Assembly: GCF_013283195.1 (NCBI RefSeq)
Contig: NZ_JABEKT010000002.1
Span: forward strand, 372,001-436,000
Direction: 5' to 3'
From: Ensifer adhaerens
GTDB lineage: Bacteria; Pseudomonadota; Alphaproteobacteria; Rhizobiales; Rhizobiaceae
Length of the DNA stretch: 64,000 nt
Shown here: piece after piece, positions 41,961-54,009 of the stretch
How positions within the stretch are numbered: position 1 is the first letter of the stretch
Layout: every line of letters starts with the position of its first letter
Notes under the pieces: generated by a model
Told to the model about the DNA's origin: nothing
Databases searched by the model: none
Seen by the model: the letters and a program-made list of their open reading frames with translations, nothing else
Made by a program: the position numbers and the translations under genes

Positions 41961-43187
41961 TTACGTTTGGCAACTGCGGGCATCGACAGGCAGCACCTTG
42001 GCTTCGCCATTGGCATGGCGCAGCGTGAAATGGTCGAAATTGGCGATCGACGCGCAGGAGTGGTTGGGGAAGACCCGCACCCGGCTTCCGAGTGCCAAGG
42101 GACGTCCCGAGAAGGGAACGAAGCCATGCTCTTCGGAAAGGCGCTCGAGCGTCCACGAGCCCGTTTCGCCATCATCCTCGGCGCTGACGACGGTGCCGAA
42201 TCCGGCGCCGCCCATGCCGTGTGCCCCGCGATCGGAGCTCATTGATTTCGAGCCGGCATCAAGGATGAAGTGGGTGTCATTGGAGGCAACGACGCGGGCA
42301 ACGACGGAGAGCGCCAGATCGTCGGCCGTGCAGATGCCGAGCCTGAGCGCCGTGCCGTCGAGGAAGACGTAGTTGCCGGGTCGGATGCAATCGACCTCTG
42401 AAGGAAGCGGCGCCCCCAGACAGGTCGGTGTCGCGCCGACGGAGAGGCACTCGACGGCAATGCCGCGGTCGCGAAGCCGTCCGGCGAGACCGGCGAGGTC
42501 TGCCGCTTCATCAAGCGCGACCTTGGCGAGACTTTGCGGGTTTGCGGCAGCGTAGGAATGGCCGGCATGCGAGAGTAGTCCGGCAAAGCGCAGACCGTCG
42601 GCGGCCGCGATCCGGGCGCAGAGTTCGAGTGCTGCCGGATCGTTCGGCTTGAGACCGACACGGCCGAGGCCGACATCGACCTTGAGGAAGACGCCGATTT
42701 CGACGCCGTGATGCCTGGCGGCTTCAGCCAGCGCATCGACACCCGTTCCGCTTGCCGCAATCGTCCGCAGTTCCGTGCCGCGCGCCTTTACCGCGGGCAG
42801 CAGGCGGTCGAGCGACTGCGCCTTGACGATGGGATAGGCCAGGATGATCGAGGGGATTCCGGCTTCGGCAAAGACCAGCGCCTCGCTCGGCTTGGATGCG
42901 GTGATGCCGCGTGCGCCAAGCGCCAGCTGCTGTCGCGCGATATGGACGCTCTTGTGCGTCTTTACATGCGGGAACATCGAGACGCCGGCGGCGGTGGCGC
43001 GTTGCTGCATGGCCCTCATGTTGCGCACGAGTCGCGCCTCGTCGACTTCGATATAGGGCGTCGGTCGCTCCGCGGCCGATGGACGCCAGAAGCCCGAGGC
43101 CTTCGGGTCGGTTGAACCATTGTCAATGTCGGCAGTCGCGCTGCCGGCGGCAGGCGCAGCCGCCACCGTCACTTCGGAAGTGGTCAT
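41961..43187 (-). CDS. PLP enzyme of the D-threonine aldolase/D-serine dehydratase (DSD1) family
   Basis: The 408-residue protein has an alanine-racemase-type TIM barrel. The PLP lysine is in PHVKTHKSV and glycine-rich phosphate contacts follow. The C-terminal metal site PNHSCASI (His-x-Cys) is diagnostic for the metal-dependent DSD1/D-threonine aldolase group rather than true alanine racemases. It would cleave D-beta-hydroxy amino acids or dehydrate D-serine. An extra N-terminal ~35 residues (alanine/threonine-rich) precede the conserved FWRPSAAERPTPYIEVD; the real start may be further in. It is last in the minus-strand oligopeptide ATPase operon and supports the D-peptide theme. Confidence 0.82.
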   Translation of the reverse strand: MTTSEVTVAAAPAAGSATADIDNGSTDPKASGFWRPSAAERPTPYIEVDEARLVRNMRAMQQRATAAGVSMFPHVKTHKSVHIARQQLALGARGITASKPSEALVFAEAGIPSIILAYPIVKAQSLDRLLPAVKARGTELRTIAASGTGVDALAEAARHHGVEIGVFLKVDVGLGRVGLKPNDPAALELCARIAAADGLRFAGLLSHAGHSYAAANPQSLAKVALDEAADLAGLAGRLRDRGIAVECLSVGATPTCLGAPLPSEVDCIRPGNYVFLDGTALRLGICTADDLALSVVARVVASNDTHFILDAGSKSMSSDRGAHGMGGAGFGTVVSAEDDGETGSWTLERLSEEHGFVPFSGRPLALGSRVRVFPNHSCASIANFDHFTLRHANGEAKVLPVDARSCQT

Positions 43188-43225
43188 CTTGGAGTGCTCT
43201 GATTTGAAAAGGGAATTGCCGGGCG

Positions 43226-44182
43226 TCAGCCCGTTGCGACCTGCCTTACGAAATGGGTCGATGAGATTTGATGCATCGGCAGTTCACGGGGCACGAAGTC
43301 CGGGGCGCGCACGGCACTGGGGATTTCGTCGGACATCGGCTGGCGGCCCTCCGGGCGGCGTGTCGGGTCGGCGATCGGCACGGTCGACAGGAGCTTGCGG
43401 GTATAGGGATGCTGGGGATTGCCGAACACCGAGCGGCGGTCACCGATCTCGACAATCTCGCCCAGATACATCACCGCGACACGGTGGGCGATACGCTCGA
43501 CCACGGCCATGTCGTGGCTGATGAAAAGAAGCGCGATCTGCATTTCGCGCTGTAGATCCATGAGCAGGTTGATCACCTGTGCCTGGATCGTCACGTCGAG
43601 CGAGGCGACGGCCTCGTCGGCGACGATCAGGCGTGGGCTGAGCGCAAGCGCGCGGGCGATGCAGATGCGCTGGCGCTGGCCGCCGGAAAATGCGTGCGGA
43701 TAACGCTCGAGATGCTCGGGCGACAGTTCGACCTTGGCCAGAAGCTCGGCGGCGCGGGCGCGCATCATGTCGGTCGAGCCCAGCTTGTGAACCCGCATGG
43801 GGTCGATGAGCGATTGCTCGATGGTCATGCGCGGGTTGAGGGAGGAGAACGGATCTTGAAAAACCATCTGGGCGTCGCGCCGGAACCGCGCGAGCACGGC
43901 GCGCGGTGCACCGATCAATTCGGTGCCGTCAAAGCGGATCGAGCCCGAGCGCGGCCGGTCGAGCTGCATGATCGAGCGGGCGACGGTCGACTTGCCGCAG
44001 CCTGATTCGCCGACCAGCGCCAGCGTCTCACCAGGAAAGATGTCGAAGGAGACGTTCTCCACCGCATGCACGCGGCCGGAGACATGGCCGAACAGTCCGG
44101 CCTTGAGATCGAAGCGCGTGACCAGGTTGCGCACCGAAACGAGCGGCTGGCGGGTTTCCTTCATCGGTGCGGACGCGTTCAT
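43226..44182 (-). CDS. oligopeptide/dipeptide ABC transporter ATPase (OppF/DppF-type)
   Basis: The 318-residue ATPase has Walker A GESGCGKST, signature FSGGQRQRICIARA, Walker B LIVADEAVASLD, and the OppF/DppF C-terminal extension GNPQHPYTRKLLSTVPIADP, which in this family holds an iron-sulfur cluster or substrate-linked loop. It overlaps the OppD-type gene by 4 bp. It powers the permeases encoded on the other strand (48457-50363). That ATPases and permeases are split into opposing operons is unusual for this family. Confidence 0.93.
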   Translation of the reverse strand: MNASAPMKETRQPLVSVRNLVTRFDLKAGLFGHVSGRVHAVENVSFDIFPGETLALVGESGCGKSTVARSIMQLDRPRSGSIRFDGTELIGAPRAVLARFRRDAQMVFQDPFSSLNPRMTIEQSLIDPMRVHKLGSTDMMRARAAELLAKVELSPEHLERYPHAFSGGQRQRICIARALALSPRLIVADEAVASLDVTIQAQVINLLMDLQREMQIALLFISHDMAVVERIAHRVAVMYLGEIVEIGDRRSVFGNPQHPYTRKLLSTVPIADPTRRPEGRQPMSDEIPSAVRAPDFVPRELPMHQISSTHFVRQVATG

Positions 44183-53194: not shown

Positions 53195-53211
53195 GAGATG
53201 AGAGTACGATC

Positions 53212-54009
53212 ATGAAGGTTTTCATCAGCGCTGATATCGAGGGCACGGCGGGGATCACCGCCTGGGACGAGGCCAAGAAGGGCCACCCGGAATACGAGGA
53301 GTTCCGCGAATACATGACCGACGAGCTGGTCGCTGCCTGCGAAGGCGCCAAGGCCGCCGGTGCCAAGGAGATCGTGGTCAAGGACGCCCATTCGACCGCC
53401 CGCAATCTGATCCTGTCGAAGCTGCCGGCCTATGTCAGCATCGTCAGGGGCTGGAGCGGCCATCCCGATCTGATGATGTTCGGCATCGACAAGAGTTTCT
53501 CGGCAGCGCTTTACACCGGCTATCACAACAAGGCCGGGACCGACACCAATCCGCTCGCCCACACGCTGACCGGCACGGTGTCGCGGCTCCTGATCAATGG
53601 CGAAGTGGCGTCGGAATTCACGCTGAACGCGCTTTGCGCCGCGCGCTATGGCGTGCCTTCGGCGTTTCTTTCGGGCGATGCCGGCATGTGCGCCGAGGCC
53701 AAGGCGATTGCTCCGGGTATCGGCACTGTAGCGACAAGCGAAGGGTTCGGTCCCGCGACCCGGTCGCTGACGCCGAAGGCTGCGGTTGCCTCTATTCGCG
53801 AGGGCGTGGAGAAGGCGCTTTCGGGCGATCTGAAGGCCTGCCTGCCGAAGCTCGCCGACCGTTTCGAGCTGGTGGTCGAGTACACGACACCAATCGAGGC
53901 CTATCGCGGCAGCTGGTACCCAGGTGTCGAGCATATCGCGGCGCGCACGCTGCGCTTCGAGGCGAAGGACTTCTTCGAAATCCAGCGCGCTATTCGCTTC
54001 ATCGTTTGA
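53212..54009 (+). CDS. dppA: DppA-type D-aminopeptidase (M55)
   Basis: The 265-residue metallopeptidase matches Bacillus DppA at the zinc ligands: D8 and E10 (ISADIEG), H60 (KDAHST), H105 (GYHNK) and a Glu near 131-135, with the catalytic His at about 117 (LAHTLTG). DppA releases N-terminal D-amino acids from peptides, with preference for D-Ala-D-Ala. The ATG at 53212 is preferred to 53191. It is the last gene of the operon; a GC-rich hairpin follows. Together with the importer it predicts use of D-amino-acid peptides such as cell-wall fragments. Confidence 0.92.
   Translation: MKVFISADIEGTAGITAWDEAKKGHPEYEEFREYMTDELVAACEGAKAAGAKEIVVKDAHSTARNLILSKLPAYVSIVRGWSGHPDLMMFGIDKSFSAALYTGYHNKAGTDTNPLAHTLTGTVSRLLINGEVASEFTLNALCAARYGVPSAFLSGDAGMCAEAKAIAPGIGTVATSEGFGPATRSLTPKAAVASIREGVEKALSGDLKACLPKLADRFELVVEYTTPIEAYRGSWYPGVEHIAARTLRFEAKDFFEIQRAIRFIV

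What the first reader, a model, noticed from the sequence alone, without database searches (positions are those of the whole stretch)
41961..54009. Bidirectional cluster that looks dedicated to importing and degrading D-amino-acid peptides
Seen: a LysR gene sits between two operons. On the minus strand are two oligopeptide ATPases and a DSD1/D-threonine-aldolase-type PLP enzyme. On the plus strand are a long peptide-binding protein, two permeases, a cytoplasmic S12 hydrolase, an alpha-oxoamine-synthase-fold enzyme and a DppA-type M55 D-aminopeptidase with its zinc ligands intact. Known: DppA releases D-amino acids; DSD1-type enzymes act on D-serine or D-threonine; S12 peptidases include D-aminopeptidases. 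Inference: cell-wall or non-ribosomal D-peptides are taken up, trimmed inside the cell and the D-amino acids broken down. The complete set, especially with an AOS-type enzyme, is not a pathway I know as described.
Basis: partly seen in the sequence, partly recalled or inferred. Interest (0 to 1): 0.75.

Follow-up and report, generated by a model that had tools for sequence, protein, structure and literature searches.

The report
D-peptide uptake island with odd PLP enzyme
A soil bacterium related to Ensifer carries a gene island that probably imports and digests peptides containing mirror-image (D-) amino acids, and one of its enzymes belongs to a branch of a familiar enzyme family that seems to have lost the parts needed for its usual chemistry.

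Summary
Observation confirmed: ten genes, 41961-54009, two divergent operons around LysR. In 20 loci of the same branch, S12 lies within 5 kb of the AOS-like gene in 19 and M55 in 18. The gene is patchy: 2 of 297 genomes of the order and 11 of 16 of the genus, the window's own included. D-peptide import and breakdown is supported by association: DppA zinc ligands kept; the DSD1-family enzyme resembles dehydratases; an unrelated D-serine ammonia-lyase takes its place in Nitratireductor. The novelty is the 'AOS': a separate multi-phylum clade that keeps the PLP residues but alters the Asn, flexible loop and PATP loop of acyl-CoA-using AOSs. An epimerase-like gene lies within 1.5 kb in 23 of 79 loci, against 0 of 30 KBL-like control loci. 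Six relatives carry Tat-like N-termini, pointing outside the cytoplasm, where acyl-CoA is not expected. I propose an acyl-CoA-independent amino-acid racemase/epimerase; this is inferred and untested. New variant of a known kind.

The parts
41961..43187 (-). DSD1-family fold-III PLP enzyme; probable D-3-hydroxyamino-acid (D-Ser/D-Thr type) dehydratase
   Evidence: PF01168+PF14031; best PDB D-threo-3-hydroxyaspartate dehydratase 174 bits, D-serine dehydratase 153, D-threonine aldolase 108; PNHSC motif
43226..44182 (-). Oligopeptide ABC transporter ATPase (DppF type)
   Evidence: PF00005+PF08352; NCBIfam DppF 288 bits, below its cut-off
44179..45342 (-). Oligopeptide ABC transporter ATPase (DppD type); true start probably further in (the PDNC004 counterpart is annotated shorter)
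45373..46338 (-). LysR regulator between the two operons
   Evidence: PF00126+PF03466; same place in many relatives
46438..48378 (+). Family-5 solute-binding protein, 646 aa, N-terminal signal-peptide-like stretch (by eye)
   Evidence: PF00496 148 bits; nearest PDB heme/dipeptide-binding proteins, weak
48457..49494 (+). Permease, DppB type
   Evidence: PF00528+PF19300
49491..50363 (+). Permease, DppC/DdpC type, overlaps the previous gene by 4 bp
   Evidence: PF00528+PF12911; start read
50415..52082 (+). S12 (beta-lactamase-fold) hydrolase, probably cytoplasmic, with C-terminal beta-rich part
   Evidence: PF00144 194 bits; model pLDDT 86.4; Foldseek top: Lip3 DL-peptidase 9sn1, esterase IS11, Pab87, D-aminopeptidase 1ei5
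52088..53194 (+). AOS-fold PLP enzyme of a separate clade; proposed acyl-CoA-independent amino-acid racemase/epimerase
   Evidence: NCBIfam below all listed cut-offs; tree; motif table; model pLDDT 94.7, AOS fold
53212..54009 (+). M55 D-aminopeptidase (DppA type); the ORF from TTG 53191 overlaps the AOS stop
   Evidence: PF04951 293 bits; zinc ligands conserved

Best explanation
The island imports peptides that contain D-amino acids and turns them into usable amino acids and oxo acids. The binding protein and ABC importer bring the peptide in. The S12 hydrolase cuts at or next to D residues, and the M55 enzyme removes N-terminal D-amino acids. The DSD1-type dehydratase deaminates D-Ser/D-Thr-type residues to 2-oxo acids and ammonia. 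The AOS-fold enzyme, which has lost conserved elements of acyl-CoA-using AOSs but kept the PLP machinery, works without acyl-CoA, most likely interconverting D- and L-amino acids (a racemase or epimerase), doing for free amino acids what the epimerase-like enzyme beside many of its relatives may do for peptides. LysR controls the set. Shown here: gene content, conservation, active-site residues, associations. Inferred: stereochemistry, substrates, the racemase reaction, regulation. The confidence below is for the D-peptide scheme with an acyl-CoA-free AOS-like enzyme; racemisation in particular I put at about 0.3.
For: Within 5 kb of the AOS-like gene, S12 in 19 of 20 and M55 in 18 of 20 loci of this branch. 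M55 zinc ligands. DSD1 nearest to dehydratases, with the H-x-C motif. D-serine ammonia-lyase above its cut-off in the Nitratireductor counterpart. Burkholderiales counterparts carry S12, M81 and a D-amino-acid dehydrogenase-like gene, most also RidA. The window's own genome has a second island with M55, M81, a D-amino-acid dehydrogenase-like gene and an Opp-type transporter. AOS-like clade: 68 tree rows, SH-aLRT 100; K222, D188 and H191 in 80 of 80 rows, H114 in 79, R345 in 78, but the Asn of 6 of 6 references is Thr/Ser in 75 of 80 and the Pro at 336 is kept in 1 of 80; a 4-residue gap in the loop in this branch. In ThAOS one residue of this loop gates acyl-CoA-independent quinonoid formation (PMC11906848, passages). 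Epimerase-like gene within 1.5 kb in 23 of 79 against 0 of 30 KBL-like control loci. Tat-like N-termini on six AOS-like proteins and on epimerase-like proteins in four of the same loci. MalY, a PLP beta-lyase, acts as a broad racemase with Lys and Tyr as bases (PMC5845896, passages).
Against: No experiment. S12-fold proteins include esterases (IS11 is the second fold hit). The epimerase-like proteins scanned score below the curated cut-offs (214 of 500 and 299 of 400 bits), so their substrate is uncertain. 52 of 79 AOS-like loci have no epimerase-like gene within 5 kb. A group of Ignavibacteria and relatives has the gene beside a large FAD/Fe-S protein and mostly lysA, and one member lies next to an AMP-binding enzyme gene, so the clade may not have one function. 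The PLP and active-site Asp/His/Lys set is that of true AOSs. Tat signals were judged by eye; in L047 the epimerase-like gene is several kb from the AOS-like gene. The binding protein gives no hint of the ligand.
Confidence: 0.5

Rival explanations
1. D-peptide import and breakdown is right, but the AOS-like enzyme still uses CoA: it either thiolyses an alpha-amino-beta-keto acid (KBL-like) or condenses an amino acid with an acyl-CoA.
For: Same fold as SPT, KBL and ThAOS, TMq 0.85-0.90 in the 20 best rows; catalytic His, Asp, Lys and carboxylate Arg kept; 28-32% identity to the four own-genome paralogues and about 29-31% to annotated bioF, kbl and hemA on plasmids.
Against: The conserved Asn, loop and PATP-type elements are changed; no acyl-CoA or threonine-dehydrogenase gene in the island; Tat-like N-termini in six relatives; below all listed AOS cut-offs.
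Confidence: 0.25
2. The AOS-like enzyme does another CoA-free reaction at C-alpha or C-beta of the released amino acid, such as decarboxylation, retro-aldol cleavage or beta-elimination, rather than racemisation. (This share is counted inside the 0.5 of the best explanation's scheme.)
For: PLP quinonoids can branch to several reactions (general knowledge); the DSD1 neighbour resembles enzymes acting on 3-hydroxy amino acids; lysA or dapF within 5 kb in nine of 79 loci points to diaminopimelate-type substrates in some members.
Against: Epimerase-like neighbours in several phyla point to stereochemistry.
Confidence: 0.2
3. The island handles ordinary peptides, esters or amides; D-specificity is not its purpose.
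For: S12 fold hits include esterases; the ATPases, permeases and binding protein match general Opp/Dpp/Nik families below the cut-offs.
Against: M55 with all ligands, a D-3-hydroxyamino-acid-dehydratase-like protein and a non-homologous D-serine ammonia-lyase in its place, D-amino-acid dehydrogenase-like genes in sister islands.
Confidence: 0.12

Closest known systems
Bacillus subtilis dppABCDE with ykf genes (recalled)
   Same: M55 D-aminopeptidase with a dipeptide ABC importer and a dipeptide epimerase nearby (recalled); the M55 family rings in B. subtilis in the control search
   Different: No AOS-fold enzyme, S12 or DSD1 there (recalled); here no epimerase gene in the island, and the M55 scores 143 of 430 bits for the DppA model
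E. coli ddpXABCDF D,D-dipeptide system (recalled)
   Same: ABC importer plus a D,D-dipeptidase (recalled); permease C scores 203 bits to the D,D-dipeptide permease model
   Different: Below that model's cut-off of 434; different peptidases and extra PLP enzymes
Alpha-oxoamine synthases (KBL, AONS, SPT, ALAS, ThAOS 7POA)
   Same: Fold and PLP catalytic residues
   Different: Asn, flexible loop and PATP-type loop changed, separate clade, neighbours of D/L-peptide metabolism
S12 D-peptidases: D-aminopeptidase 1EI5, Pab87 2QMI, Lip3 DL-peptidase 9SN1
   Same: Fold match; SxxK, YSN, HGG motifs in the window protein
   Different: 16-21% identity in the fold alignments; specificity untested
D-threo-3-hydroxyaspartate dehydratase 3WQC and D-serine dehydratase 3ANU
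   Same: 174 and 153 bits, with the H-x-C motif
   Different: Substrate of the window protein unknown
Microcystin mlr genes (MlrC, M81)
   Same: The Variovorax sister island holds S12, an MFS transporter and an M81 protein (316 of 999 bits to MlrC)
   Different: No M81 in the window island; below cut-off; the S12 was not compared with MlrB

Membership tests
Alpha-oxoamine synthase (acyl-CoA-dependent) | AOS fold with PLP Lys, Asp, two His and carboxylate Arg | tested here: met
   K222, D188, H191, H114, R345; Foldseek to SPT/ThAOS/KBL
Alpha-oxoamine synthase (acyl-CoA-dependent) | Curated family score | tested here: not met
   bioF 192 of 426, gly_Cac_T_rel 168 of 535, ALAS 112 of 339; a true ALAS in the window passes
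Alpha-oxoamine synthase (acyl-CoA-dependent) | Conserved Asn (N-N/D-Y-L-G), loop with His, and PATP-type loop | tested here: not met
   their roles in acyl-CoA use are partly recalled and partly from PMC11906848 passages
Alpha-oxoamine synthase (acyl-CoA-dependent) | CoA-dependent condensation or thiolysis | not testable with these tools
   needs enzyme assay
Peptidase family M55 (DppA) | Five zinc ligands and full-length domain | tested here: met
   (ligand list recalled)
Peptidase family M55 (DppA) | NCBIfam DppA equivalog cut-off | tested here: not met
   143 of 430 bits
Peptidase family S12 | SxxK, YxN and HxG motifs with beta-lactamase fold | tested here: met
Peptidase family S12 | D-stereospecific cleavage | not testable with these tools
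   esterases share the fold
DSD1-type D-serine/D-3-hydroxyamino-acid dehydratase | PF01168+PF14031 and H-x-C motif | tested here: met
   chains with Ala at either position are among the 3WQC-type PDB sequences; the metal role is recalled
DSD1-type D-serine/D-3-hydroxyamino-acid dehydratase | Dehydratase activity on a named substrate | not testable with these tools
   needs assay
Peptide/opine/nickel ABC importer (family-5 binding protein) | Binding protein, two permeases, two ATPases with oligo_HPY | tested here: met

The most novel reading that the evidence does not exclude
A multi-phylum branch of the alpha-oxoamine synthase fold has become an acyl-CoA-independent amino-acid racemase/epimerase that works together with epimerase-like enzymes of the enolase superfamily and with S12 and M55 peptidases in D-peptide salvage. 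In some phyla the enzyme and an epimerase-like protein are both exported, by the Tat route, and act outside the cytoplasm.
Probability: 0.3. Interest if true: 0.75.

Novelty: new variant of a known kind. Interest (0 to 1): 0.6.

Why it matters
D-amino acids occur in cell walls and in nonribosomal lipopeptides and siderophores, and salvage routes for such peptides are less well known than those for L-peptides (general knowledge). If the AOS-like enzyme is a racemase, many genes now labelled BioF/KBL-like 'aminotransferase family protein' would be misnamed, and a family known for C-C bond formation would have an acyl-CoA-free branch. The epimerase-like, S12 and M55 neighbours make this directly testable with a handful of purified proteins.

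Tried and rejected
Biotin BioF: rejected. The protein scores 192 of 426 bits for bioF and no biotin gene is among the ten. Ordinary KBL: held unlikely on the tree and the motifs. D-threonine aldolase for the DSD1 protein: less likely than dehydratase (108 against 174 bits; H-x-C motif). Murein-only diet: not excluded, but no gamma-D-Glu-DAP endopeptidase or LD-carboxypeptidase is among the ten genes. Microcystin-type island: no M81 here; M81 occurs in sister islands and in the second island of this genome. An epimerase elsewhere in this genome: the best of nine matches is 30% identical, 128 bits, so no clear orthologue of the Nitratireductor one.

Weak points of my counts. Loci were chosen because they hold the AOS-like gene; the scan kept the best 80 of 348 relatives. 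ORFs were picked by a simple script, and L083 gave no AOS ORF (79 of 80 loci counted). The 20 loci of the window's branch were assigned by identity (58-95%); several near-duplicates among them were not in the tree. Loci stop 10 kb upstream, so the DSD1 position is cut off in several, and many loci are on short contigs. The 0-of-30 control uses KBL-like matches from Pseudomonadota only, the last few at 36-41% identity, while the AOS-like set spans several phyla, and relatives are not independent. A within-locus control on 42 long loci gave 10 with a near and 3 with a far epimerase-like hit: L043 has both, L082 lies just beyond the cut, and L047 has only a far one. The tree (quick method) used 81 of 93 rows: 12 near-duplicates were left out, after one own-genome row (L003) had been dropped for a wrong frame; it warned of long branches meeting among the references. 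The residue table left out 7 side-clade rows of 87. The order-wide search scored only part of the first-look candidates in many genomes.

Papers: the ten searches brought up no paper that I recognised, from the listings, as describing this AOS-like clade; they cover only the open-licence library. A racemase review (PMC8142540, word search and passages) has no mention of 'oxoamine'. PMC5808125 gave only a reference.
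Full report
What is there. The stretch 41961-54009 holds ten intact genes in two divergent operons with a LysR gene on the minus side. Minus strand, reading away from the centre: LysR, two oligopeptide-type ATPases, a DSD1-family PLP enzyme. Plus strand: a 646-aa family-5 binding protein, two permeases, an S12 hydrolase, an AOS-fold PLP enzyme, an M55 peptidase. 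Genes are tightly packed: the permeases overlap by 4 bp, the S12 stop and AOS start are 5 bp apart, and the AOS stop overlaps the M55 ORF. The window lies on a 20-contig, 7.07-Mb genome. By DNA it is nearest to Ensifer plasmids: 89.8% over the whole 12 kb to E. canadensis pT173e and about 87% over 93% to E. adhaerens.

Conservation. A scan of one genome per species with an alignment of the AOS-like protein kept 80 loci of 348 relatives. Twenty of them form the window's branch (58-95% identity): Ensifer, Aminobacter, Mesorhizobium, Phyllobacterium, Microvirga, Brucella pseudogrignonensis, Frigidibacter, Pseudoruegeria and some unnamed Rhizobiales. S12 lies within 5 kb in 19 of 20 (not L079) and M55 in 18 of 20 (not L029, L079). 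An even draw over the order found the gene in 2 of 297 genomes, one of them the window's own; 11 of 16 genomes of the genus, own included, have it. It is a patchy accessory island. In Mesorhizobium norvegicum (L022) the same S12-AOS-M55 trio lies near a divergent transporter (25-39% identity) and a distant DSD1-family protein. In three Ensifer loci the M55 is only 61-62% identical and 309-371 bp away, instead of 94-98% and overlapping as in the other Ensifer-type loci. Such swaps for the same kind of protein suggest selection for the function.

D-amino-acid theme. M55 keeps all five DppA zinc ligands (invariant in the 11 aligned sequences), although it scores below the DppA equivalog cut-off (143 of 430). 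The DSD1-family protein is nearest to D-threo-3-hydroxyaspartate dehydratase (174 bits) and D-serine dehydratase (153), ahead of D-threonine aldolase (108), and has the PNHSC motif. In Nitratireductor OM-1 the same place beside the ATPases holds a D-serine ammonia-lyase of another family that passes its curated cut-off (497 against 246 bits). The Variovorax counterpart has a TonB receptor, an N-acetyl-D-Glu-racemase (DgcA)-like gene, S12, MFS, M81, AOS-like, RidA and a D-amino-acid dehydrogenase-like gene. The window's own genome has a second island, without an AOS-like gene in the stretch read, holding an Opp-type transporter, M81, another M55 (37% identical) and a D-amino-acid dehydrogenase-like gene. 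The S12 model (pLDDT 86.4) matches Lip3 DL-peptidase, esterase IS11, Pab87 and D-aminopeptidase 1EI5 best. A Lip3, presumably the same, is reported to cut DL-amide bonds in syringafactin (PMC13188892, passages), so nonribosomal lipopeptides are one plausible food; the esterase hits keep this open.

The AOS-like enzyme. It is the unusual part. It has the AOS fold (model pLDDT 94.7; TMq 0.85-0.90 in the 20 best rows, to SPT, ThAOS, AONS, ALAS and KBL) but fails all AOS cut-offs listed. With KBL, ALAS and BioF references as outgroup it falls in a clade of 68 rows, SH-aLRT 100, from several phyla. Across 80 rows (7 side-clade rows left out), the PLP Lys, Asp188 and His191 are invariant, the stacking His is kept in 79 and the carboxylate Arg in 78. 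The AOS Asn (6 of 6 references) is Thr/Ser in 75 of 80; the Pro of the PATP-type loop is kept in 1 of 80; the AOS His at position 67 is not among the six commonest residues. The window's branch, the Nitratireductor type and the Bipolaricaulota type also lack four residues in the loop that carries ThAOS Val79. In ThAOS, acyl-CoA normally triggers alpha-deprotonation, and Val79 variants form the quinonoid without it (PMC11906848, passages). That Val79 maps to this loop is my alignment reading: the column is V in KBL, T in ALAS and S in BioF, as the paper states for that residue.

Neighbours of the AOS-like gene. Within 5 kb, an epimerase-like gene of the enolase superfamily occurs in 27 of 79 loci, from Bipolaricaulota, Aminicenantes, Acidobacteriota, Bacteroidota, Chlorobiota, Bacillota, Thermodesulfobacteriota and Pseudomonadota. 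Within 1.5 kb it is 23 of 79, S12 27 of 79, M55 18 of 79; in 30 KBL-like control loci all three are 0. Fifty-two of 79 loci have no epimerase-like gene within 5 kb. Nine have lysA or dapF, most of them an Ignavibacteria-type group with a large protein before the AOS-like gene (FAD/Fe-S in L058), so the clade may hold more than one function. The epimerase-like proteins scanned are below their curated cut-offs. Six Aminicenantes/Acidobacteria members carry RRxFL Tat-like N-termini (L043, L044, L045, L047, L051, L076), and in four of these loci (L043, L047, L051, L076) epimerase-like proteins begin with similar S/T-R-K-x-F-L stretches (in L047 that gene is several kb away). Judged by eye, this argues that these proteins work outside the cytoplasm, where acyl-CoA is not expected.

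Mechanism proposed. Import, S12 cleavage, M55 trimming, dehydration of D-3-hydroxyamino acids, and D/L interconversion of the rest by the AOS-like enzyme with Lys222 and perhaps His114 as the two bases. A PLP beta-lyase, MalY, is a reported broad racemase with Lys and Tyr on opposite faces of the cofactor (PMC5845896, passages). Shown: content, conservation, residues, associations. Inferred: reactions, substrates, regulation. E. adhaerens is known as a bacterial predator (recalled), which would supply such peptides; this was not tested.

Verdict. Observation confirmed. Interpretation partly supported: the D-peptide theme stands, the 'AOS-type enzyme' does not look like an acyl-CoA-dependent AOS. 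New variant of a known kind; the AOS-like clade is the point that a specialist would want to test.

Noticed in passing
L108 (G000:C14:172000-191000), 1556-11838: Second D-peptide-type island in the same genome: Opp-type ABC transporter, M81 (MlrC-like, 379 bits, below cut-off 999), M55 (37% to the window's) and a D-amino-acid dehydrogenase-like gene.
   Followed up: partly
window 60072-61598 (-): A 5-aminolevulinate synthase (660 against cut-off 339 bits); another protein on contig C1 (L004) groups with ALAS in the tree, so the genome seems to have two hemA copies.
   Followed up: partly
L054, L057-L059, L063, L065, L067, L069: In Ignavibacteria and relatives the AOS-like gene follows a 975-989-aa protein (FAD-oxidase/4Fe-4S in L058) and, except in L069, precedes a lysA-like gene (above cut-off in L058); DUF4922 and PorV-type genes lie nearby in L058: a different, unexplained setting.
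   Followed up: partly
L087 8490-13305: In a Brevundimonas bin the AOS-like gene follows an AMP-binding enzyme gene, with a class-V aminotransferase gene two genes downstream; this looks biosynthetic rather than catabolic.
   Followed up: partly
L033 5649-10355: lysA (495 against 298 bits), epimerase-like gene and AOS-like gene in a row behind an Opp-type transporter, with a D-Ala-D-Ala-ligase-like gene on the other strand: hints at murein-peptide salvage.
   Followed up: partly
L046 4881-8370: Two AOS-like genes, 29% and 50% identical to the window's, flank one epimerase-like gene in a Bipolaricaulota contig.
   Followed up: no
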